Of a stretch of DNA of 37,824 bases, positions 25,183 through 34,188 are shown piece after piece; the first letter of the stretch is position 1; the number at the start of each line of letters is the position of its first letter. The stretch comes from an uncultured Oscillospiraceae bacterium (lineage in GTDB: Bacteria; Bacillota; Clostridia; Oscillospirales; Oscillospiraceae). Both the position numbers and the translations under genes were made by a program. Under the pieces are notes generated by a model. It was not told the origin of the DNA. It worked only from the letters and a program-made list of their open reading frames with translations, and made no database searches. The DNA lies in the NCBI GenBank assembly GCA_947169975.1, contig CAMVRT010000017.1:1-37824 (forward strand), given 5' to 3'.

Positions 25183-25252
25183 TCTCCGGCGGCATAAAAC
25201 GGTTTAAAGCGGGGCATCCTATGACCAATATCAGGAAAGGATGGGTTGCGCC

Positions 25253-25687
25253 ATGATCGAACAGGATACCGTTAAGCTGCTGCGGGAGTGTGACGCCGGC
25301 GTGAAGATGGGTGTGTCGTCCATTGACGACGTACTGGGCTACGTCCATGCCCCGGAGCTGAAATCGCTTCTGGAGCGGTGCAAGAAGGAGCACGAGGAGC
25401 TGGGCGAGGAGATCGGAAAGCTCCTGAACCGCTATCAGGATGAGGGAAAGGAGCCGAACCCCATTGCCCAGAAAATGTCCTGGCTCAAAACCAATGTGAA
25501 GCTGGTCATGCACGAGTCGGACAAGACCATCGCCGATCTGATGACGGACGGGTGCAACATGGGGGTCAAGTCCCTGAACCGCTACCTCAACCAGTACGAG
25601 GCCGCCGATGAGGTGTCCAAGGACATCACCAAGCGGCTCATCAATCTGGAAGAGAAGCTGACCGTGGACATGCGGGAGTATCTGTGA
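25253..25687 (+). CDS. DUF2383-like four-helix-bundle protein
   Basis: A 144-residue all-helical protein. It resembles clostridial ferritin-like/DUF2383 proteins: DTVKLLRECDAGVKMGVSSID at the start, KKEHEELGEEI in the middle, and ADLMTDGCNMGVKSLNRYL toward the end. Conserved Glu/His positions (for example in CKKEHEEL) could bind metal, but no clear di-iron motif is seen. The ATG at 25253 matches the family start; an in-frame ATG at 25241 would add four residues. An 11-codon reading frame (25221-25256) ends on its start codon. A strong terminator follows the stop. Confidence 0.75.
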   Translation: MIEQDTVKLLRECDAGVKMGVSSIDDVLGYVHAPELKSLLERCKKEHEELGEEIGKLLNRYQDEGKEPNPIAQKMSWLKTNVKLVMHESDKTIADLMTDGCNMGVKSLNRYLNQYEAADEVSKDITKRLINLEEKLTVDMREYL

Positions 25688-25736: not shown

Positions 25737-26921
25737 TTACTCGATGGGGATCCTGATCTTCACGTCGCTTGTGGGATAGGCGGCGCAGGCGTGAACGTAG
25801 CCAAAATCGCGGTCAGCGCCGCGGCGTCCGTCATTTTCCGGGCAGATATAGACGCTGCCGTAGAGGACCTTTGTGCGGCAGAAGCCGCATTCGCCGCTGC
25901 GGCAGCCGGTCTCGATGCGGATGCCGGCCCGCTCCAGCGCCACCACCAGACTCTCTGTGGCCCTGGCGGGGATCACATCCTCGTGGATGCCGCGGACAAC
26001 AGTGAGCTGATAGGTCTGATCCTTGCATTCCATGGGGTAGCCCGGGAAGGTGGTGATATCCTTGGCCTGTCCGAACACCTCAAAACGCACGCGGCGCTTG
26101 GGGATCTCCAGCTTGGCAAGCTCCCCGTGGAGGAAGCGGTACATCACCTGGGGACCGCAGATAAAATAAGTGGTATCAGGCGCGGAATACTTGCGGATCA
26201 GCTCGGCGGTCAGGAAGCCTCTTTCCCCTTTCCAATCCGGCTCATCGCCGGAGAGGACGTGGATCACGTGGACGTGCTCGCCCTCCAGCGCGGCCAGCTC
26301 ATCCTTCAGCGTGATGTCATCGGAGGAGACGGAGCCGTAGAGAATGGTGAGGTCCATGTCCAGCGTGCCGTTGGCAACCTCCCGGGCCATGGAGGCAAAG
26401 GGGGTGATGCCCACGCCGCCGGCCAGGGCCACCACGTGTTTGGCGTCGCGCAGCGGCTCATAGTAGAACTGGCCGCAGCCGATCAGGCCGCGGAAGGTGT
26501 CCCCCACCTTCACGCTGTCGTTGATATAGTCGCAGATGAAGCCGTCGCCCTTGGAGCGGCGGACGGTGATCTCCACAAAGCCCTTTTCCAGCCTTGCCTG
26601 CCACGGCGCGGAGGAGATGGAATAGGGGCGGGAGATCAGGCTTTCGCCCATGGGAAAGTCCAGCACCATGAACTGACCGGCATAGAAGGGCGGGAGCTTG
26701 CCGCCGCCCACCTTCTCAAACCGGATCGTCTTGGCGGTTTTGGAGGCAAAGCGGATCTGCGTGACCACCAGATCCAGCTTGCCGGGATGCCACTCCCTGG
26801 CCACGTCGCCGATGGGATCCTCACGGACAGGCTGGGCGGATGCGGTCTCAAACGCCCGGAGACGGGCCTTGGTGACGCGGGAAGCGCCGCCAACATCCTT
26901 GATAAAGCCTTTTACCTTCAT
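25737..26921 (-). CDS. NAD(P)H-flavin reductase with C-terminal [2Fe-2S] ferredoxin domain
   Basis: A 394-residue electron-transfer protein that should carry electrons from NAD(P)H through flavin to an iron-sulfur cluster. After a 50-residue N-terminal extension comes the flavin domain (about 50-155) with RPYS at 98-101. The NAD(P) domain has GGVGITPF (168-175) and CGPQVM (255-260). The plant-type ferredoxin domain has C340, C345, C348 and C379. The ATG at 26921 overlaps the stop of the CrtI-like oxidoreductase by ATGA and has AGGAGG at 7 bases. Coupling suggests it supplies electrons to that enzyme. The partner is an inference. Confidence 0.88.
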   Translation of the reverse strand: MKVKGFIKDVGGASRVTKARLRAFETASAQPVREDPIGDVAREWHPGKLDLVVTQIRFASKTAKTIRFEKVGGGKLPPFYAGQFMVLDFPMGESLISRPYSISSAPWQARLEKGFVEITVRRSKGDGFICDYINDSVKVGDTFRGLIGCGQFYYEPLRDAKHVVALAGGVGITPFASMAREVANGTLDMDLTILYGSVSSDDITLKDELAALEGEHVHVIHVLSGDEPDWKGERGFLTAELIRKYSAPDTTYFICGPQVMYRFLHGELAKLEIPKRRVRFEVFGQAKDITTFPGYPMECKDQTYQLTVVRGIHEDVIPARATESLVVALERAGIRIETGCRSGECGFCRTKVLYGSVYICPENDGRRGADRDFGYVHACAAYPTSDVKIRIPIE

Positions 26922-28447
26922 TTCGCCGCCTCCTTTGCCATGGTGTCAAGCACGTTCTTGGCGGCCTTGCGGCCGTTGGTCACAGCGGGACCCATGCCGT
27001 CGCCGCTGATCTGATGGGCGCCGGAGAACTCCAGGTGCCGGATAAAGCTCTCCTCCTCCGCCGTCTGGAGCCGTGCCACGATGTGATCCTCCATGGTGTG
27101 TGCATAGCCGTAGATGCAACCGTTCCACATACCGGTGTAGTGGGCAACAGTCATAGGCGTCTCAATGGCGATCTCCAGCACGTGGTCCAGCAGGTTGAAG
27201 CCCAGATACTCGCTCATATAGTCGATCATCTGCCGGGCCACCTCATGCTTGACCCGGTCATAGTCATCGGCGGACACGGTCTTCCAGCCGTCCACCCGGG
27301 GCAGCGTGGTGATGGAGTAGGAGCAGGTGCCGGCGGGCGTGGCGTCGGGGTTAGCCAGATTGTGGCAGATGCAGGTGAGGTAGCGATAGGGGCCAAGGCC
27401 CTTCAGCTCGTCATAGAGCTTGTCGGTGTCCATAGTGTCGCCCCGGAACACGCTGTAATCCTTGATGCCCAGTTCCTCGGCGCTCTTGTCCAGGATCATC
27501 ACCACGGAGAAGGCCGTCAGGCTCAGGCGGCGGCCGTTCACCATCTTGATGGCCCCGGCGGGTACAGCGTCCGCCGGCTCGATCATAGAGGTGTAGACCT
27601 TGTTGGGATAGGCCGAGCAGATCACGTAGTCGGCGTAGATCTCATCGCCGCGGGCAGTGCGGACGCCATAGGCCTGCCCGTCCCGCACCAGGATCTTGTC
27701 CACGTGCTGGCGGTACTCGATCTGAACGCCCATGGCCTCGGCGCGCTCGGCCATCTTCAGGCTCATCTCGTGGGAGAACTTCCGGGGAATGTAGGAGCCG
27801 TATCCCACATAGTCCGCCATCAGTACAGAATAGATGGTAAAGGGCAGCTCCCTGAAGCCGGAGCCCACGTAGATCCAGTAGGGCGCCAGCAGATCCAGCG
27901 CCTTCTGGGGCAGGTCGAAGGTGTCCAGCACCTCCTGGGTGGAGTAGCCGGCGGTCTTGACAAACGCCTCATGCTTAAGCAGCATCTTGGCCTTGCTCAT
28001 GGGGTGGATGGACAGCTCGTTGACACTGTTGAACACGGTATCGCACAGCTTCAGCAGCCGCAGCACCTTGTCATAGGTGCCGGGCACCGCCGCGTCCACC
28101 TCTTTGGCAAAGGTCTCCAGGCCGGGGTGCAGCGTGACCTCCAGGCCGGGCAGACTGGCGTGGTACGCCTCGGGCACCCGCAGCCAATCGATATCCACAC
28201 CCATATCGTCGAAAAACTTGCCCACCTTCAGGCGGTTTTCTTTGGAGCCGATGGACATCATCTCATGGAGCGTCGCCTCGATCTCGACGCCGCCGCGGAC
28301 GTAGCTGGTGGCCAGACCGCCGGGCAGGTTGTGGCGCTCCAGCACCAGCACGTCCTTGCCCTTGTCGGCCAGCATCAGCGCGGATGAAAGACCTGCCAGC
28401 GCACCACCCACCACGATGACGTCGTAGTGGTCTTTATAAAACTTCAT
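26918..28447 (-). CDS. CrtI/retinol-saturase-like FAD oxidoreductase
   Basis: A 509-residue flavoprotein of the phytoene desaturase / retinol saturase family (COG1233 type). The N-terminal FAD motif reads VIVVGGALAGLSSALMLA with an LERH Glu binding ribose, then the PGG block. The C-terminal region GDGMGPAVTNGRKAA is the family's second FAD-binding patch. Relatives oxidise or saturate carbon-carbon double bonds in polyenes. Here a fatty acyl or polyene substrate is suggested by the upstream isomerase and the divergent acyl-ACP genes. The ATG at 28447 has AAAGGA at 9 bases. The direction of reaction cannot be read from the sequence; the coupled reductase favours reduction. Confidence 0.82.
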   Translation of the reverse strand: MKFYKDHYDVIVVGGALAGLSSALMLADKGKDVLVLERHNLPGGLATSYVRGGVEIEATLHEMMSIGSKENRLKVGKFFDDMGVDIDWLRVPEAYHASLPGLEVTLHPGLETFAKEVDAAVPGTYDKVLRLLKLCDTVFNSVNELSIHPMSKAKMLLKHEAFVKTAGYSTQEVLDTFDLPQKALDLLAPYWIYVGSGFRELPFTIYSVLMADYVGYGSYIPRKFSHEMSLKMAERAEAMGVQIEYRQHVDKILVRDGQAYGVRTARGDEIYADYVICSAYPNKVYTSMIEPADAVPAGAIKMVNGRRLSLTAFSVVMILDKSAEELGIKDYSVFRGDTMDTDKLYDELKGLGPYRYLTCICHNLANPDATPAGTCSYSITTLPRVDGWKTVSADDYDRVKHEVARQMIDYMSEYLGFNLLDHVLEIAIETPMTVAHYTGMWNGCIYGYAHTMEDHIVARLQTAEEESFIRHLEFSGAHQISGDGMGPAVTNGRKAAKNVLDTMAKEAAK

Positions 28448-28465
28448 AGGCAATTATCCTTTCCG

Positions 28466-28494
28466 AAAAACAGAGGGGCGGAAGTCCGCCCCCC
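28466..28494 (-). terminator. Hairpin between the isomerase and CrtI-like genes, possible attenuator
   Basis: A 7-bp GC stem (28475-28481 with 28486-28492, loop AAGT) is followed on the minus strand by CTGTTTTT. It lies in the 60-base gap within the operon, so it may reduce readthrough and give the first gene more transcript. Confidence 0.55.
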
Positions 28495-28507
28495 GTTTCT
28501 GCATATC

Positions 28508-29896
28508 TTAGAAGAAGCGGTCAACCAGCTCGCGGGAGTACTCGGCCGTCTCATCCATGTCGCCGAAGGACATGACCTCACCGGCATAGTAGGTGTCGTA
28601 CTTGCCCTGCATGGCCTCCACCTTGTCATACCAGCCGGCGGCATAGTCGTCGGAGAAGACATGGGGGAAGTAGTACACGGACCACTCGTTGATGACTTCC
28701 TTGGCGGGGTTCTTCATGATCTTCAGGTCATCCTGCACCATCTGGCGGCACTTCTCATAGGGGATCTCCTTGGAGTTCTTGTGCTTGCGCAGAGCGTAGG
28801 TGGTGATGACCTGGTCGATCTGATCCTTCCAGCGGCGATAATAGACCATCAGATGACCCAGCTTCTCGGGCACCATGTTGTCAAACACGTAGTAGGAGAT
28901 CTCGGGATGGTTCTCCGGCGTGGTCAGGAAGGCCTGAACATCGTAGCGCTCGTAGTCGATCTTGGAGAACAGGGCCTTCTCGTCCTCGCGGGCGTCGAAG
29001 TAGTCCACCATGCCCTTCTGACCATCGGCGCGGGTGCCGGGGATATACAGCGGCGCGGTGACGATAATCTTGTCATACTCCTCCACCGTGCCGTTGACGG
29101 TGACGTACACCTTGCCGTCCTTGCGCTCCACCTTCTCGATGGTGCTGTTCAGACGGGCGGGGTTCTTCAGGTGGGCGTTCAGCTGCTCCCAGATGTACTG
29201 GGTGCCCTCTTTCCAGGTCCACAGGTTGACCTTCACGAAGTTCATGCAGGTCTGATAGTCCAGATACTTCAGCACGTAGCCGGCGGGGATCTCATCGAAG
29301 TAGCCGTAGCCGAAGGAGGTAAAGGGCCCGATCCAGATCTTCTGGACCAGAGGCACGCCGTTCATCTCGCAGAACTCCTTGAAGGGCAGGGCCAGATCCT
29401 TCAGGTTGGGGTTGACGCCCTCCACCTTCTCGCGGCCCGGGGTGACGGCATAGCCGTCATAGCGGCCCTCGGCCACGCCGCGGTGACCGTTGACGTCGTA
29501 GCCCTTGTACTTGGTCTCCAGCAGCTCGCCGAACTTCTTGAGCTGCTTCTTCATCTTCAGCATCCAGGGGTTCTTGATGATGTTGCCGAGGGTGCGGGCA
29601 AAGGGCTCGATGACCTCGCCCTTGGCGTTCTTATAGTTGCGGTTCAGTTTCGGGCCGTCGTGGGTGATGCCGCAGAACTGCTCCACGTCGTGCACAGCGT
29701 AGTAGCTGGGCACGCCCATGATGGCACCCATCTCATAGCGGCGGCCGTTGTAGTGGGGGGACCAGCACTTGCCGCCCACGCGATCCTGCCGCTCCAGAAT
29801 GGTGTAGTTCTCGTAGCCCTTCTGCTCCAGATACATACCGGCAGACAGACCGGCGGGACCGCCGCCTACGATGCAGATGCGAATGTTCTTGTCCAT
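28508..29896 (-). CDS. Polyenoic fatty acid (linoleate) isomerase-like flavoprotein
   Basis: A 462-residue FAD protein of the amine oxidase fold. The dinucleotide motif GGGPAG is at 11-16, with ILER and RVGGKC following. The block RRYEMGAIMGVPSYY (52-66) and the C-terminal YYFPHV, AGWYDKVE, MQGK and YAGEVMSFG segments closely match my memory of the Cutibacterium acnes polyenoic fatty acid isomerase, which turns linoleate into trans-10,cis-12 conjugated linoleate. That enzyme is 424 residues; this one is slightly longer. Identity was recalled, not computed. The ATG at 29896 has GGAGG at 7 bases. It is the first gene of the minus operon. Confidence 0.85.
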   Translation of the reverse strand: MDKNIRICIVGGGPAGLSAGMYLEQKGYENYTILERQDRVGGKCWSPHYNGRRYEMGAIMGVPSYYAVHDVEQFCGITHDGPKLNRNYKNAKGEVIEPFARTLGNIIKNPWMLKMKKQLKKFGELLETKYKGYDVNGHRGVAEGRYDGYAVTPGREKVEGVNPNLKDLALPFKEFCEMNGVPLVQKIWIGPFTSFGYGYFDEIPAGYVLKYLDYQTCMNFVKVNLWTWKEGTQYIWEQLNAHLKNPARLNSTIEKVERKDGKVYVTVNGTVEEYDKIIVTAPLYIPGTRADGQKGMVDYFDAREDEKALFSKIDYERYDVQAFLTTPENHPEISYYVFDNMVPEKLGHLMVYYRRWKDQIDQVITTYALRKHKNSKEIPYEKCRQMVQDDLKIMKNPAKEVINEWSVYYFPHVFSDDYAAGWYDKVEAMQGKYDTYYAGEVMSFGDMDETAEYSRELVDRFF

Positions 29897-29946
29897 TTGT
29901 ATACCTCCATCTAATGAATTGTTGCTGGAATCAGTTTTCTGATCGT

Positions 29947-29952
29947 ATTATA
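29947..29952 (-). promoter_or_regulatory. -10 box for the isomerase operon
   Basis: TATAAT on the minus strand lies about 50 bases before the isomerase ATG; no good -35 is seen, which suggests activator dependence. The divergent gap 29897-30078 is AT-rich and also contains the short palindrome CAAATTATTTG. Confidence 0.5.
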
Positions 29953-30048
29953 CACCACATGGCAAAACATTTCACTATATATTTTCCCATTCTACCAAAT
30001 TATTTGTATATATCGTTGAATTCGCTTTCAAAATCGGCGTGTCTGTGG

Positions 30049-30054
30049 TAAAAT
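30049..30054 (+). promoter_or_regulatory. Extended -10 box for the ligase-ACP-thioesterase operon
   Basis: TGGTAAAAT (TGn plus TAAAAT at 30049-30054) lies 24 bases before the TTG start of the ligase gene. The -35 is weak (TTTCAA at 17 bases). Confidence 0.45.
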
Positions 30055-30078
30055 GAATCCGGACAGGAGGTGATGACC

Positions 30079-31419
30079 TTGCGATTCGACCATTTTGCGG
30101 ATTTGCTGGATTATTGGGCACATGAGACGCCCGATGCCTGCGCTCTGCGATACGGAGAAAAACGCTTCTCTTACGCGCAGCTTCGGGAGGCAGCTCATGC
30201 CCGCGCAGCGGAGCTGCGCCGCAGCGGGAAGACCTGCATGGGCATCCTGTCCGACGGCAGTCTTGACTGCGTGGTGGAGCTGTTTGCCGCGAATCTCGCC
30301 GGGATGCAGATCGTCATGCTGGATGAAAACGCCCCGGAGGAGCTTTTGCGGCGGCTGATCGTCTATACCGACGCGGACGCGCTCTGGGGAGACCCGGATC
30401 TGGTGGAGGAGCTCTCCCCTGCCCTGACGAGGGGCGCGGAGAACGGCTGCGGCCGCATCCTCTTCTTCACCTCCGGCACCACGGAGCAGGCCAAGGCCGT
30501 GGTGCTGACGGATCACAGCCTTTGTCAGAGCGCGTGGAACGGCTCGGCGAAGCTGCCGCTCTCCCGTTCCGACACGCTGCTGTGTCTGCTGCCGCTGGGC
30601 CATGTGTTCGGCTTTGTGTGCGGACTGTTATGGGGCCTATCCTGCGGCGCCTGCGTAGCTCTGGGGCGCGGTCCACGGCACTATACGGACGACTGCACAT
30701 ATTACGCACCCACTGCAGTTTCGGTGGTGCCGCTGCTTTTGGGCTTCCTGCTGAAAAGCGGCGCCGTGAATCCCCAGCTGAAGCTGATTCTGGTTGGCGC
30801 CGGCGACTGTCCACCCGCCCTGCTCACCGCCGCCGCGGCCAGAGGCATCCGCGTCAGCTTCGGCTACGGACTAACGGAGACCAGCTCCGGCGTGGCCATC
30901 AGCGTGTCCGGCGATCCCTATGCCATGGAGATCTGTCCGGACGACGCCGTTACGCTGGCAGAGGACGGGGAAATCCTGATCCAAGCCCCCACCTGCATGA
31001 TGCAGGGCTATTACAAGATGCCGGAGGCCACGGAAGCCGTGCTGAAGGACGGGGTGCTGCGCTCCGGCGATCTGGGCCGCTTTGACGAGGCGGGCAAGCT
31101 CCATATCACCGGGCGAAAAAAAGAGATACTGGTGCTCTCCGACGGTACGAAGATCTTTTTGCCCGAGTACGAAGGCCGTATTATGGCAGTGTTGGAACAC
31201 ACCGAGCTGGCCGTGATCGCAAAGGACGGACGGCCTGTGCTGGTGTTCGCCGGCGAGGCCACGCAGGAGGAGCTGACGCGGCGGCTCAAGCCGCTGATGG
31301 CGCAGCTGTCCCGCGGCCAGCAGCTGGCCGGGATCTATATTACTGACGAACCCCTGCCCAGAACGGCAACGGGGAAAATCAAGCGCTGGGAGCTCCAGCA
31401 GAAAGCAGGTACGCCATGA
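30079..31419 (+). CDS. AMP-forming acyl ligase (acyl-ACP synthetase-like)
   Basis: A 446-residue ANL-superfamily adenylating enzyme that should activate a carboxylic acid with ATP and pass it to the thiol of CoA or an ACP. Motif A3 reads FFTSGTTEQAKAVV; the usual GxPKG is EQAKA, with the Lys kept. A5 is GYGLTET, A7 SGDLG, and the C-terminal catalytic Lys sits in PRTATGKIKR. It is shorter than typical acyl-CoA synthetases (500-560). The start is probably TTG 30079, with AGGAGGTGAT at ideal distance; ATG 30073 and GTG 30070 overlap that SD. An ACP gene overlaps its stop, so the ACP is the likely acceptor. Confidence 0.88.
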   Translation: MRFDHFADLLDYWAHETPDACALRYGEKRFSYAQLREAAHARAAELRRSGKTCMGILSDGSLDCVVELFAANLAGMQIVMLDENAPEELLRRLIVYTDADALWGDPDLVEELSPALTRGAENGCGRILFFTSGTTEQAKAVVLTDHSLCQSAWNGSAKLPLSRSDTLLCLLPLGHVFGFVCGLLWGLSCGACVALGRGPRHYTDDCTYYAPTAVSVVPLLLGFLLKSGAVNPQLKLILVGAGDCPPALLTAAAARGIRVSFGYGLTETSSGVAISVSGDPYAMEICPDDAVTLAEDGEILIQAPTCMMQGYYKMPEATEAVLKDGVLRSGDLGRFDEAGKLHITGRKKEILVLSDGTKIFLPEYEGRIMAVLEHTELAVIAKDGRPVLVFAGEATQEELTRRLKPLMAQLSRGQQLAGIYITDEPLPRTATGKIKRWELQQKAGTP

Positions 31420-31667
31420 CAAGACAGGAAATCCTTGACAAGACCAAGACCGTGATCTACGACTGCTTCCCCGACATGATGGGCACGGAGCTGCGGGAGG
31501 ATTCGGTCATCAACACCGAGACCGCCATCGACTCCATGGGCTTTGTGCTGATCATCTGCAAGCTGGAGGCGCTGTTTGACGTGCGCATCCCGGAGCGCCA
31601 GTGGAAAAAGCTCTCCACCCTGGGCGATGTGGTGGACGCCATCGAGAAGAGGCTGCCCAAGGCATGA
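31416..31667 (+). CDS. Dedicated acyl carrier protein
   Basis: An 83-residue acidic carrier protein. The phosphopantetheine site is S40 in the motif AIDSMGF. The N-terminal and C-terminal helices (MTRQEILDKTKTVIYDCF; LSTLGDVVDAIEKRL) have ACP spacing. It differs from the usual fatty-acid-synthase ACP, in which the motif reads DSLD, so it looks like a pathway-specific carrier. The ATG overlaps the ligase stop (ATGA), and its own stop overlaps the thioesterase start in the same way. This tight coupling suggests the three proteins are made in fixed proportion. Confidence 0.9.
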   Translation: MTRQEILDKTKTVIYDCFPDMMGTELREDSVINTETAIDSMGFVLIICKLEALFDVRIPERQWKKLSTLGDVVDAIEKRLPKA

Positions 31668-32377
31668 GCATCTACCGCCAGGAGCTGCTGCTGCGCAGCA
31701 AGCATGTGGATATGTACCGCCGGCTGCGCACCTCGGAGCTGATGAGGCTGCTGCAGGAGGCCTCTATCCGCCACACGGAGGAGCTGGGCATGGGGCGTGA
31801 CAGGACGCTGGATCGCGGCATCCTGTGGATGCTGGGACTTCAGCGTATGGAAATCACACGGATGCCGGAATACGACGAAACCGTGGTGCTGAAAAGCTGG
31901 CCGGGGAAAACCATGCACGTTCTGTTTCCGCGCTACTACAGTCTGGAGACAGCAGACGGCGAGCCGCTTCTCCGTGCCAGTGCGCTCTGGACGCTGGTGG
32001 ACGCTGAAAAGAGGAAAATGGTCTTCCCGGAAAAGGCGGGAATCGTCATCGATGGCGTCGTCACCGGCGAGGAAATCCCTCTTCCCTCTCCCCCATCTCG
32101 GCTCAACTGCGATCACAGCAGCCTGTTCACGGTGCCCTACAGCTATGTGGATCTCAACGGCCACATGAACAACGCCCGCTACTTTGATCTGGCGGAGGAC
32201 GTGACCGGCGCAGCTGCGGACGGCAAAACGCTGGCAAGCATCCAGATGGAATATGTCAGCGAGGCGCGGCTGGGACAGGAGCTGAAGGTCTTATGGGGAC
32301 AGGAAGGAACTCGCTATTATGTGACCGGCGAGGCGGATCAGTGCGTATTCCGCATGGGGCTTACATATAGTAAATAG
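31664..32377 (+). CDS. Acyl-ACP thioesterase (double hot-dog, FatA/FatB-like)
   Basis: A 237-residue thioesterase that should release a free acid from acyl-ACP. The N-terminal hot-dog (about 5-125) begins YRQELLLRSKHVDMYRRL; the C-terminal hot-dog (150-237) has DLNGHMNNARYFD with D163, N165 and H167, the catalytic Asp/Asn/His pattern of this family. Length and two-domain layout fit bacterial PF01643-type enzymes. It ends the ligase-ACP-thioesterase operon. It may instead hydrolyse off-pathway acyl-ACP. No membrane segment or signal peptide is seen. Confidence 0.88.
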   Translation: MSIYRQELLLRSKHVDMYRRLRTSELMRLLQEASIRHTEELGMGRDRTLDRGILWMLGLQRMEITRMPEYDETVVLKSWPGKTMHVLFPRYYSLETADGEPLLRASALWTLVDAEKRKMVFPEKAGIVIDGVVTGEEIPLPSPPSRLNCDHSSLFTVPYSYVDLNGHMNNARYFDLAEDVTGAAADGKTLASIQMEYVSEARLGQELKVLWGQEGTRYYVTGEADQCVFRMGLTYSK

Positions 32378-32407: not shown

Positions 32408-32450
32408 ACCCCCCCGATACAGTACTATCCATGTACTGCATCGGGGGGTA
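32408..32450. terminator. Bidirectional terminator between the thioesterase and GGGtGRT genes
   Basis: An 18-bp near-perfect stem (32408-32425 with 32433-32450, one A/C mismatch). On plus it runs into TTTATT, on minus into a run of T (AATTTTTTTTC). It serves both convergent operons. Confidence 0.9.
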
Positions 32451-32479: not shown

Positions 32480-33478
32480 TTATTTGCAGGCCTCTTCCAC
32501 GGCAACAGCCACGGCGACGGTGGCGCCCACCATCGGATTGTTGCCCATGCCCAGGAAGCCCATCATCTCCACGTGAGCGGGCACGGAGGAGGAGCCGGCG
32601 AACTGGGCGTCGGAATGCATGCGGCCCATGGTGTCGGTCATGCCGTAGCTGGCGGGACCGGCGGCCATGTTGTCCGGGTGCAGCGTGCGGCCGGTACCGC
32701 CGCCGGAAGCCACGGAAAAGTACTTTTTGCCCTGTTCGATGCACTCCTTCTTATAGGTGCCGGCCACAGGGTGCTGGAAACGGGTGGGGTTGGTGGAGTT
32801 GCCGGTGATGGACACATCCACGCCCTCATGGTGCATAATGGCCACGCCCTCGCGGACATCGTCGGCGCCGTAGCAGCGGACGTTGGCGCGCTCGCCCTCG
32901 CTGTAGCGGATCTCGCGGACGATCTTCAGCTCGCCGGTGTAGTAGTCGAACTGGGTCTGCACATAGGTGAAGCCGTTGATGCGGCTGATGATCTGGGCGG
33001 CGTCCTTGCCAAGGCCGTTGAGGATGACGCGCAGAGGCTCCTTGCGGGCCTTGTTGGCGTTCTTCACGATACCGATGGCGCCCTCGGCGGCGGCGAAGGA
33101 CTCGTGGCCGGCCAGGAAGGCAAAGCACTTGGACTCGTCGCTGAGCAGCATGGCGCCCAGGTTGCCGTGACCCAGACCTACCTTGCGGTCCTCGGCCACA
33201 GAGCCGTCGATGCAGAAGGCCTGGAGGCCCACGCCGATCTTGCGGGCGGCCTCGGCGGCAGTCTTCACGCCGGACTTGATGGCGATGGCTGCGCCTACGG
33301 TGTAGGCCCAGCAGGCATTCTCGAAGCAGATGGGCTGGATGCCCTTGACGATCTCATAGGGGTCAAAGCCCTTGGCCTTGCAGATCTCGCGGCACTCCTC
33401 CACGGAGCCGATGCCGTACTGGGCGAGGACGCCGTTGATCTTGTCGATTCTTCTCTCGTAGCTTTCAAACAGAGCCAT
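32480..33478 (-). CDS. GGGtGRT protein
   Basis: A 332-residue protein of the family named after its motif, here SVASGGGTGRTLHPDNM. Function is unknown. It is almost always paired with a scaffold-like Fe-S protein, as here. Alternating helices and Gly-rich loops (AIMHHEGVDVSITGNSTNP, GHGNLGAMLLSD) suggest a nucleotide- or cofactor-binding fold, but no known motif fits. The ATG at 33478 has GGAGG at 7 bases and follows its partner by 17 bases. It ends the two-gene operon. Confidence 0.9.
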   Translation of the reverse strand: MALFESYERRIDKINGVLAQYGIGSVEECREICKAKGFDPYEIVKGIQPICFENACWAYTVGAAIAIKSGVKTAAEAARKIGVGLQAFCIDGSVAEDRKVGLGHGNLGAMLLSDESKCFAFLAGHESFAAAEGAIGIVKNANKARKEPLRVILNGLGKDAAQIISRINGFTYVQTQFDYYTGELKIVREIRYSEGERANVRCYGADDVREGVAIMHHEGVDVSITGNSTNPTRFQHPVAGTYKKECIEQGKKYFSVASGGGTGRTLHPDNMAAGPASYGMTDTMGRMHSDAQFAGSSSVPAHVEMMGFLGMGNNPMVGATVAVAVAVEEACK

Positions 33479-33495
33479 TTTCTCGTCCTCCTCCC

Positions 33496-34188
33496 TTATT
33501 CCTGGCGCGGGTCAATGTACTTGACCGCGGCGTCCCACTGGCCGTAGTGGCCGGTGGCCTTCTTCATGGCCTCGTTGGCGTCGTCGCCCTTCTTGATGAA
33601 GTCCATCATCTTGCCCAGATTGATGAACTCATAGCCGATGACCTCGTTGTTCTCGTTCAACGCCATCTTGGAGCAATAGCCCTCGGCCATCTCCAGATAG
33701 CGGGGGCCCTTCTCGCGGGTACCGAACATGGTGCCCACCTGAGAGCGCAGGCCCTTACCCAGATCCTCCAGGGATGCGCCCACAGCCAGGCCGTTCTCAG
33801 AGAAGGCGGACTGGGTGCGGCCGTAGACGATCTGCAGAAACAGCTCGCGCATGGCGGTGTTGATGGCGTCGCACACCAGATCGGTGTTCAGCGCCTCCAG
33901 CAGGGTCTTGCCGATGAGGATCTCGGACGCCATGGCGGCGCTGTGGGTCATGCCGGAGCAGCCCAGCACCTCCACCAGTGCCTCCTCGATGATGCCGTTC
34001 TTCACGTTCAGCGTCAGCTTGCAGGCGCCCTGCTGAGGAGCGCACCAGCCGATGCCGTGGGTGAAGCCGGAGATGTCGCTGATCTCCTTGGCCTGAACCC
34101 ACTTGCCCTCCTCGGGGATGGGAGCCGGGCCGTGATACGCGCCCTTGGCAACGGGGCACATATGCTGTACTTCGGTCGTATAGATCAT
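33496..34188 (-). CDS. Iron-sulfur cluster assembly scaffold-like protein (partner of GGGtGRT)
   Basis: A 230-residue protein with an IscU/NifU-like region. Candidate cluster ligands are C49 and C56 (GWCAPQQGAC), C77 (LGCSGMTHS) and C172 (GYCSKM); the LGCSGM block is the scaffold-like part. It is longer than IscU (about 130 residues), with an extra C-terminal part, so its cargo may differ. The ATG at 34188 has AAAGGA about 11 bases upstream. It is transcribed from a TATAAT promoter 52 bases away. The role of the pair is unknown. Confidence 0.87.
   Translation of the reverse strand: MIYTTEVQHMCPVAKGAYHGPAPIPEEGKWVQAKEISDISGFTHGIGWCAPQQGACKLTLNVKNGIIEEALVEVLGCSGMTHSAAMASEILIGKTLLEALNTDLVCDAINTAMRELFLQIVYGRTQSAFSENGLAVGASLEDLGKGLRSQVGTMFGTREKGPRYLEMAEGYCSKMALNENNEVIGYEFINLGKMMDFIKKGDDANEAMKKATGHYGQWDAAVKYIDPRQE

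What the first reader, a model, noticed from the sequence alone, without database searches (positions are those of the whole stretch)
25737..32377. Candidate self-contained module for isomerising and reducing unsaturated fatty acids on a dedicated carrier
Two divergent operons share one 180-bp control region. The minus operon has a linoleate-isomerase-like flavoprotein, a CrtI/retinol-saturase-like oxidoreductase and an NAD(P)H reductase with a [2Fe-2S] domain. The plus operon has an acyl ligase, an ACP and an acyl-ACP thioesterase. Seen: the motifs, ATGA couplings and divergence. Known: the isomerase family makes conjugated linoleate, and the saturase family reduces polyene double bonds. Inferred: ligase loads the acid on the ACP, isomerase shifts the bond, saturase plus reductase hydrogenate it, thioesterase frees it. 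I know of no description of this combination.
Basis: partly seen in the sequence, partly recalled or inferred. Interest (0 to 1): 0.88.

Follow-up and report, generated by a model that had tools for sequence, protein, structure and literature searches.

The report
Rumen gene set for hydrogenating fats
Six neighbouring genes, shared by many bacteria of ruminant guts, look like a kit that handles unsaturated fatty acids, shifts a double bond and then probably hydrogenates it, which may help explain how trans fats arise in cattle, sheep and goats.

Summary
Three minus-strand genes (PAI-type isomerase, CrtI-like flavoprotein, FNR-[2Fe-2S] reductase) diverge across 182 bp from a ligase, an ACP and an acyl-ACP thioesterase. 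The set is conserved: 57 of 58 loci with enough flank have all six in this order. Of 200 family genomes 12 have the isomerase; the ligase occurs in 11, all of them among these 12. Three genomes without the cassette beside the isomerase hold the ligase elsewhere. The isomerase is 53% identical to Cutibacterium acnes PAI. CrtI and FNR coevolve (distance correlation 0.95), and FNR follows CrtI in 16 of 17 diverged CrtI loci, the 17th being cut off.

Best reading: a biohydrogenation module in which PAI makes a conjugated diene and CrtI-FNR reduces it, while ligase, ACP and thioesterase handle the acyl chain. Order of steps and ACP-bound reduction are inferred.

Corrections: a conserved terminator-like hairpin splits isomerase from CrtI-FNR (45 of 78 loci). 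CrtI-FNR also occurs without the cassette. High isomerase identity reflects constraint more than recent spread. No activity has been shown. PAI genes in rumen MAGs were already reported; my searches found no description of the module.

The parts
28508..29896 (-). [quoted passage not shown]
   Evidence: PDB search: C. acnes PAI 2b9w, E 4.2e-135; 53.1% identity over 416 aligned columns; PAI R88, F168, F193 = R86, F195, F220, invariant in 22 of 22 aligned sequences
28473..28494 (-). terminator-like hairpin between isomerase and CrtI-like gene
   Evidence: similar hairpin in 45 of 78 related loci against shuffled mean 3.25
26918..28447 (-). CrtI / carotenoid isomerase / retinol saturase-like FAD oxidoreductase, 509 aa, proposed reductase subunit
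   Evidence: best NCBIfam carot_isom TIGR02730, 106 bits, below its cut-off of 586.9; model pLDDT 79.6, best PDB match 4rep, query TM 0.80
25737..26921 (-). FNR-type FAD/NAD(P)H reductase with C-terminal [2Fe-2S] domain, proposed electron donor of the CrtI-like protein
   Evidence: Pfam NAD_binding_1, Fer2, FAD_binding_6; FNR follows CrtI in 16 of 17 diverged CrtI loci, the other being cut off; distance correlation with CrtI 0.95
29897..30078 (.). shared divergent control region, 182 bp; promoter-like sites 29975-29947 (-) and 30027-30054 (+)
   Evidence: ATTATACA (TGTATAAT on the other strand, like an extended -10 box) in 37 of 72 homologous intergenic regions, commonest 8-mer of one shuffle in 7
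30079..31419 (+). AMP-forming acyl ligase (proposed acyl-ACP synthetase)
   Evidence: Pfam AMP-binding E 2.6e-37; TSGT, GYGLTET, GD and the C-terminal GK (K435 of the aligned row) invariant in 18 of 18 aligned sequences; motif roles recalled
31416..31667 (+). acyl carrier protein, an additional and divergent carrier of the genome
   Evidence: Pfam PP-binding and NCBIfam ACP matches; D39-S40 invariant in 20 of 20; higher-scoring carrier matches elsewhere in G000
31533..31535 (+). codon of ACP Ser40, expected phosphopantetheine site
   Evidence: invariant DS in 20 of 20, codon TCC; role from general knowledge
31664..32377 (+). acyl-ACP thioesterase (FatA/B type), 237 aa from ATG 31664
   Evidence: Pfam Acyl-ACP_TE 4.6e-19 and Acyl-ACP_TE_C 2.7e-10; no NCBIfam match up to E 0.01; ATGA overlap with ACP

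Best explanation
The six genes form a fatty-acid biohydrogenation module of ruminant-gut Clostridia. The PAI-type isomerase moves a double bond of free linoleic (or linolenic) acid with its FAD to give a conjugated diene, most likely trans-10,cis-12 as C. acnes PAI does. The CrtI-like flavoprotein, reduced by the FNR-[2Fe-2S] partner with NAD(P)H, then saturates one double bond of the conjugated diene, giving a trans-monoene (expected: trans-10 18:1). The ligase, ACP and thioesterase activate the acyl chain on a carrier separate from that of fatty-acid synthesis and release it as free acid, which keeps toxic PUFA and their products out of the cell's own lipid synthesis or presents the chain to the reductase. 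Shown: gene content, homology, conserved linkage, genome-level co-occurrence, coevolution of CrtI with FNR and of ligase with ACP and thioesterase, and a hairpin that could lower CrtI-FNR expression relative to the isomerase. Inferred: substrates, reaction order, direction of CrtI (reduction), product isomer, and acylation of this ACP.
For: Isomerase = PAI homologue, E 4.2e-135, recalled gate residues invariant. Canonical six-gene order in 57 of 58 loci; in one distant relative (isomerase 64% identical) the six genes are still together but all on one strand (L168). Ligase in 11 of 200 family genomes, all among the 12 with an isomerase; the 12th has a 51% isomerase; Fisher p 3e-17, genomes not independent. 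G505, G600 and G733, where the ligase is not beside the isomerase, hold it elsewhere. Distances correlate 0.95 for CrtI-FNR, 0.90 for ligase-thioesterase, 0.82 for ligase-ACP; 0.38-0.57 for the isomerase with the others, 0.53 for CrtI-ligase, 0.59 for FNR-thioesterase (60 loci). Two CrtI/FNR clades (37 and 27 of 66 loci) are exchanged as pairs. FNR lies downstream of CrtI on the same strand in 16 of 17 diverged loci, the 17th cut by the contig end, which implies that electrons flow from NAD(P)H to CrtI. GntR/FadR-type regulator genes (acyl-CoA sensors, recalled) lie near CrtI in 5 of the 13 stretches, which carry CrtI-FNR without the isomerase. 70 of 80 loci are from ruminant gut sets by title. 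[quoted passage not shown]
Against: No activity, product or expression data. CrtI relatives include desaturases and isomerases as well as saturases, and its best NCBIfam score is far below the cut-off. CrtI-FNR without ligase in the genome (G438, G549) shows that the carrier is not needed for that pair in general. The CrtI paralogs may have other substrates. In one rumen study Oscillospiraceae fell, not rose, from low to high trans-10/trans-11 ratio (4.56 to 1.69%, P 0.074), though Lachnospiraceae, Olsenella and single OTUs rose (PMC9853040, section 8). In the genomes with a 51-54% isomerase (G411, G672, G684) the ligase is missing and another flavoprotein lies near. Some copies look damaged or misassembled: the ligase hit of G646 has an internal stop and is partial, that of G733 is partial, and ligase of L006 and CrtI of L071 and L079 come in two pieces. 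The loci were chosen by identity to a rumen-type query, and such MAGs are numerous in the collection. The genome searches score only the best few candidates per genome, so absences are not absolute.
Confidence: 0.66

Rival explanations
1. The module isomerises and detoxifies only: PAI makes a conjugated diene, and CrtI-FNR acts as a second, reduced-flavin isomerase (as carotenoid isomerase does, recalled), so no double bond is removed.
For: Closest named family of the CrtI-like protein is carotenoid isomerase TIGR02730, though below its cut-off; carotenoid isomerases need reduced FAD (recalled), which FNR could supply.
Against: A dedicated, coevolving NAD(P)H reductase fits a stoichiometric reduction better than a catalytic one; saturation is a main fate of these acids in the rumen (recalled).
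Confidence: 0.17
2. Ligase, ACP and thioesterase are a salvage route: an acyl-ACP synthetase loads dietary acids for membrane lipid synthesis and the thioesterase is only an overflow valve. The isomerase and reductase act on free acids beforehand. (This rival concerns the cassette and can be true together with the biohydrogenation reading.)
For: The cassette is an evolutionary unit separate from isomerase and CrtI-FNR and can lie elsewhere in the genome (G505); acyl-ACP synthetases for exogenous acids are known (PMC11271967, search listing only); PAI acts on free acids (recalled).
Against: A thioesterase next to the ACP would undo the loading; among 200 family genomes the ligase is found only where an isomerase is (11 of 11), although salvage would be useful without it.
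Confidence: 0.35
3. The isomerase makes 9,11-CLA (the trans-11 route) rather than 10,12-CLA.
For: 47% of aligned residues differ from C. acnes PAI; trans-11 is the more usual route in the rumen (PMC9853040, abstract).
Against: The residues recalled as gating the substrate are unchanged in 22 of 22. Product specificity cannot be read from sequence here.
Confidence: 0.3
4. The neighbourhood is an accident of one lineage, with unrelated genes side by side.
For: None found.
Against: Order kept in 57 of 58 loci, some with silent sites at chance level to the window; co-occurrence in whole genomes even when unlinked.
Confidence: 0.02

Closest known systems
[quoted passage not shown]
   Same: Homologous along nearly the whole isomerase, 53% identity over aligned columns, recalled key residues kept.
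   Different: C. acnes monocultures made trans-10,cis-12-CLA but no trans-10 18:1 (PMC7339423, passage); here the isomerase is linked to a putative reductase and a carrier cassette. The C. acnes gene neighbourhood was not examined.
CrtI / carotenoid isomerase / retinol saturase flavoproteins (fold: 4rep gamma-carotenoid desaturase)
   Same: Family matches and fold, query TM 0.80.
   Different: Far below the cut-offs of the listed carotenoid families; coupled to its own FNR-[2Fe-2S] protein.
Rumen biohydrogenation by Butyrivibrio: CLA reductase (Hughes 1982, Fukuda 2007; seen only as cited)
   Same: Same overall chemistry: isomerise, then reduce a conjugated acid.
   Different: The sequence of that reductase was not held, so homology is untested. 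A Butyrivibrio genome paper found no linoleate isomerase in its strain or in the other Butyrivibrio species compared (PMC6249431, passages).
Lactiplantibacillus plantarum cla system (hydratase, short-chain dehydrogenase, decarboxylase, enone reductase)
   Same: Several enzymes together convert and partly saturate linoleate (PMC13365329, passages).
   Different: Chemistry by hydration; no such family is among the listed matches of the six proteins (lists capped at 25 per protein).
Enterococcus faecalis AcpB, an auxiliary ACP (PMC6509188, search listing only)
   Same: An additional ACP linked to exogenous fatty acids.
   Different: There it serves regulation of synthesis; here it sits with a ligase and a thioesterase.

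Membership tests
PAI-type fatty acid double-bond isomerase | Homology to C. acnes PAI over both domains | tested here: met
   E 4.2e-135, two aligned stretches; 53.1% identity over 416 columns
PAI-type fatty acid double-bond isomerase | Substrate-gate/carboxylate residues Arg88 and Phe193 (recalled from the structure paper, which is not held) | tested here: met
   R86 and F220, invariant in 22 of 22
PAI-type fatty acid double-bond isomerase | Conversion of linoleate to trans-10,cis-12-CLA | not testable with these tools
   needs enzyme assay
CrtI / carotenoid isomerase / retinol saturase | Sequence score above a curated family cut-off | tested here: not met
   TIGR02730 106 bits against 586.9; TIGR02734 84.1 against 238.1
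CrtI / carotenoid isomerase / retinol saturase | CrtI fold with dinucleotide-binding motif | tested here: met
   4rep query TM 0.80; G14, G15, A16, L17, A18, G19 invariant in 18 of 18
Two-component flavin reductase (CrtI-like + FNR; my own grouping) | The two genes are adjacent and coevolve | tested here: met
   16 of 17 diverged loci, the other cut off, plus 2 of 2 close ones without isomerase; correlation 0.95
Acyl-ACP synthetase + dedicated ACP + acyl-ACP thioesterase cassette | Catalytic motifs of each protein present and conserved | tested here: inconclusive
   ligase motifs in 18 of 18 and ACP Ser in 20 of 20 are met; the thioesterase was tested only by Pfam, its relatives were not aligned (one search failed)
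Acyl-ACP synthetase + dedicated ACP + acyl-ACP thioesterase cassette | Ligase acylates this ACP rather than CoA | not testable with these tools
   needs assay
Butyrivibrio CLA reductase | Sequence homology with the Fukuda 2007 protein | not tested
   sequence not held
L. plantarum cla system | Oleate hydratase, SDR, decarboxylase and enone reductase genes | tested here: not met
   no such family among the listed matches of the six proteins

The most novel reading that the evidence does not exclude
This is the genetic basis of the trans-10 branch of rumen biohydrogenation: a PAI isomerase coupled to an anaerobic two-component CrtI-type saturase that works on a dedicated acyl carrier, shared among uncultured rumen bacteria that supply the trans-10,cis-12-CLA and trans-10 18:1 tied to milk fat depression.
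Probability: 0.3. Interest if true: 0.9.

Novelty: new variant of a known kind. Interest (0 to 1): 0.74.

Why it matters
Rumen biohydrogenation shapes the fat composition of milk and meat. A 2020 study states that the rumen bacteria forming trans-10 intermediates were not unambiguously identified and that C. acnes is unlikely to be the only or predominant one (PMC7339423, abstract and passages). This module gives candidate genes and hosts for that question, so it can be tested by expression in a laboratory strain or by metatranscriptomics. The CrtI-FNR pair, if it reduces isolated or conjugated carbon-carbon double bonds, would be an unusual anaerobic ene-reductase with several paralogs of unknown substrate.

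Tried and rejected
Rejected: chance neighbourhood. Not supported: phage or plasmid carriage. No relative in viral contigs (two peptide patterns, 23 pattern matches, none confirmed); in plasmids only a 28% match in Photobacterium. Rejected after a test: recent horizontal spread as the main reason for the high isomerase identity. Between the window and L021, L067 and L054 fourfold silent sites agree at 66.9, 55.3 and 17.1%, against 55.6, 56.1 and 20.3% expected by chance: L067 and L054 at chance, L021 somewhat above. So constraint explains most of it. Old transfers remain likely: the genome of L021 has GltX 46% but isomerase 89% identical, while same-genus G433 has 84% and 84%. The GltX hit of L021 is partial, and wrong binning of MAG contigs is possible.

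Led nowhere: the isomerase model was poor (pLDDT 57.9) and was not used for a fold search. Comparison with G521, a same-genus genome without the isomerase: only the nifU/GGGtGRT pair matches, so no empty site was seen. No shared perfect 6-mer dyad in 72 intergenic regions (commonest in 3). The 940-aa flavoprotein was considered as a seventh member: a hit in 31 of 80 loci, but relatives occur in 20 of 20 genomes tested, so it is treated as an occasional neighbour. Paper searches were for single points (PAI residues, acyl-ACP synthetases).

Dropped before counts: one search uses 58 of 80 loci (the rest have too short flanks) and hits of at least 60 bits (35 for ACP); one search uses 60 loci, after leaving out 6 duplicates from the 66, which had near-full-length hits without stops; the clade counts include those duplicates; one search uses 78 loci with an isomerase-CrtI gap of at most 400 bp; the intergenic set has 72 regions under 500 bp, the window's included.


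Full report
WHAT IS THERE. The window lies in a 2.16 Mb genome of 46 contigs with one copy of the isomerase. Minus strand: isomerase 28508-29896; CrtI-like 26918-28447; FNR-[2Fe-2S] 25737-26921. Plus strand: ligase 30079-31419; ACP 31416-31667; thioesterase 31664-32377. The divergent gap is 182 bp, and the three ATGA overlaps are real. The likely ligase start is a TTG eight bases behind AGGAGG, and the thioesterase start is ATG 31664, not the upstream GTG of the raw ORF list.

CONSERVATION. One scan of one genome each for 84,980 species found 259 stretches encoding relatives of the isomerase; the best 80 (83-96% identical) were kept. Of these, 58 have at least 2.7 kb on the ligase side and 2.95 kb on the CrtI side; 57 hold all six genes in the same divergent order, and L045 lacks ligase, ACP and thioesterase there. 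In 53 of the 57 the gap between ligase and isomerase hits is 91-296 bp; in four it is 617-7424 bp. Counting each gene wherever its side is long enough: ligase 72 of 73, ACP 72 of 73, thioesterase 70 of 71, CrtI 73 of 73, FNR 66 of 66. By title 70 of 80 come from ruminant gut genome sets (RUG, RGIG or a named ruminant host; meaning of RUG and RGIG recalled) and 10 do not say. This is biased, because the query is a rumen-type sequence and such genomes are numerous.

CO-OCCURRENCE IN WHOLE GENOMES. In a phylum sample 1 of 398 genomes has the isomerase, the window's own. In the window's family 12 of 200 do, in 8 of 106 genera by the tool's tally; within the own genus 3 of the 4 sampled. The ligase profile hits 11 of the same 200, all of them among the 12. 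The odd one, G411, has a 51% identical isomerase, no ligase, and none of the other five genes in the stretch fetched. CrtI hits above 870 bits occur in 13 of 200: the same 11 plus G438 and G549, which carry CrtI-FNR without isomerase or cassette nearby and no ligase in the genome. In G505 the ligase-ACP-thioesterase cassette lies on another contig; G600 (genome of L045) and G733 also hold the ligase elsewhere (the G733 hit is partial). In the family of G598 (L043, labelled Lachnospiraceae) 6 of 200 have the isomerase. There L168 has all six genes on one strand with an isomerase of 64% identity, and L167 the usual order at 67%; L166 shows isomerase, CrtI and FNR only. The ligase hit in L167's genome, G646, is partial and has a stop inside. 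Every genome searched whole for the ligase that has an isomerase of 64% or more holds it (11; G600, G733, G646, G712); the three with 51-54% (G411, G672, G684) do not. These searches score only the best few candidates per genome, so absences are not absolute.

THREE EVOLUTIONARY UNITS. Among 60 non-duplicate loci with all six genes, pairwise distances correlate 0.95 for CrtI-FNR, 0.90 for ligase-thioesterase and 0.82 for ligase-ACP. They correlate 0.38-0.57 for the isomerase with the rest, 0.53 for CrtI-ligase and 0.59 for FNR-thioesterase; none of 999 permutations reached any of these values, so all genes share some history. Two clades of CrtI/FNR, 37 and 27 of 66 loci, are exchanged as pairs under nearly the same isomerase. 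So isomerase, CrtI-FNR and ligase-ACP-thioesterase look like separate parts that selection keeps together. This is what a pathway would show, with enzymes that need each other in pairs or triples.

THE CRTI-FNR PAIR. Sixteen diverged CrtI relatives in the family search (28-35% identical) and one from another family (L180) were examined. Sixteen of the 17 have FNR directly downstream on the same strand, 8-248 bp on, and one, L122, is cut by the contig end. Five of the 13 stretches fetched, which carry CrtI-FNR without the isomerase, also hold a gene of one GntR cluster near CrtI; the two scanned match GntR, FCD and FadR_C. A dedicated NAD(P)H-[2Fe-2S] donor argues that the CrtI-like enzyme runs in the reducing direction. 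CrtI desaturases pass electrons on to quinones or oxygen (recalled). The model fits the carotenoid desaturase fold best (4rep, query TM 0.80; the other 49 listed hits 0.65 or less). Family scores stay far below cut-offs, so it is not filed under any named family.

THE ISOMERASE. It matches C. acnes PAI over both domains, with 53.1% identity over 416 aligned columns. Arg88, Phe168 and Phe193 of PAI (roles recalled; paper not held) are kept in 22 of 22. It evolves slowly: against L067 and L054 silent sites are at chance level while 84-85% of residues stay the same. This points to strong constraint over a long time. The mismatch between GltX and isomerase identities points to old transfers between families.

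REGULATION. A hairpin with a T tail stands between isomerase and CrtI in the window (28494-28473) and in 45 of 78 relatives, with differing stem sequences in those printed, against 3.25 expected from shuffles of single bases. It may make isomerase transcripts exceed CrtI-FNR transcripts. In 72 intergenic regions the commonest 8-mer is ATTATACA, in 37, which read on the other strand resembles an extended -10 box.

MECHANISM. Most likely: free linoleate is isomerised by PAI, and one double bond of the conjugated acid is reduced by CrtI with electrons from NAD(P)H through FNR; the ligase charges the acid on the module ACP, and the thioesterase frees the product. Each of six genomes examined has at least one other, better-scoring carrier match, so the ACP is an extra one. 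Whether the reductase acts on ACP-bound acid is open: CrtI-FNR exists without the ligase in some genomes, but the ligase goes with the isomerase.

WHAT IS KNOWN. [quoted passage not shown] C. acnes made trans-10,cis-12-CLA without trans-10 18:1, and the bacteria behind the trans-10 route were called not yet unambiguously identified (PMC7339423, abstract and passages). In another study, from low to high trans-10/trans-11 ratio, Lachnospiraceae, Olsenella and the Eubacterium nodatum group rose and Oscillospiraceae fell (P 0.074) (PMC9853040, section 8). Some module loci bear Lachnospiraceae, Coriobacteriales or Mogibacterium labels, which is a lead, not a test. No linoleate isomerase was found in the Butyrivibrio genomes of PMC6249431 (passages). 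I found no description of the six-gene module in searches (listings, and passages of the papers named here) of an open-licence library. That library lacks most subscription papers and holds no bioRxiv preprints, so absence there is weak evidence.

VERDICT. A real, conserved gene module of ruminant-gut bacteria whose parts fit PUFA isomerisation and reduction. It is a new arrangement of known enzyme kinds, untested at the bench, and directly relevant to an open question.

Noticed in passing
L076:4299-7118 and 30 other module loci; L105:4972-7824: A GltD-like 4Fe-4S flavoprotein of about 940 aa lies near the module in 31 of 80 loci, within 150 bp downstream of FNR in 15. It is the only one of the genes sought that lies near the diverged isomerase in L105, L169 and L170. 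Relatives occur in 20 of 20 genomes tested. It may be an alternative fatty-acid reductase.
   Followed up: partly
L117-L134, L180: CrtI-like + FNR gene pairs without an isomerase beside them, several per genome (G505, G565), some near GntR/FadR-type regulators: possibly a family of two-component anaerobic ene-reductases with unknown substrates.
   Followed up: partly
window 32480-34188: GGGtGRT protein and a NifU-N-like protein next to the module. The pair is kept at 87% DNA identity in G521 and at 75-78% protein identity in L067 (there cut by the locus end), so it looks like a conserved two-gene unit.
   Followed up: no
window 25241-25687: A 148-aa protein with a sub-threshold DUF2383 match (22.0 against 30.8 bits) sits beside the FNR gene.
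   Followed up: no
window 32410-32448: Long hairpin (16 pairs) with a T tail on the minus strand, downstream of the thioesterase. It lies on the 3' side of the convergent GGGtGRT gene and is its likely terminator.
   Followed up: no
L071, L072: A second ligase-like gene (37-38% identical) directly beyond the thioesterase.
   Followed up: no
PMC9853040, section 8: Taxa that rise with the trans-10 shift there (Lachnospiraceae, Olsenella, Eubacterium nodatum group) resemble some labels of module-bearing MAGs (Lachnospiraceae, Coriobacteriales, Mogibacterium). The labels may be wrong and no link was tested.
   Followed up: no
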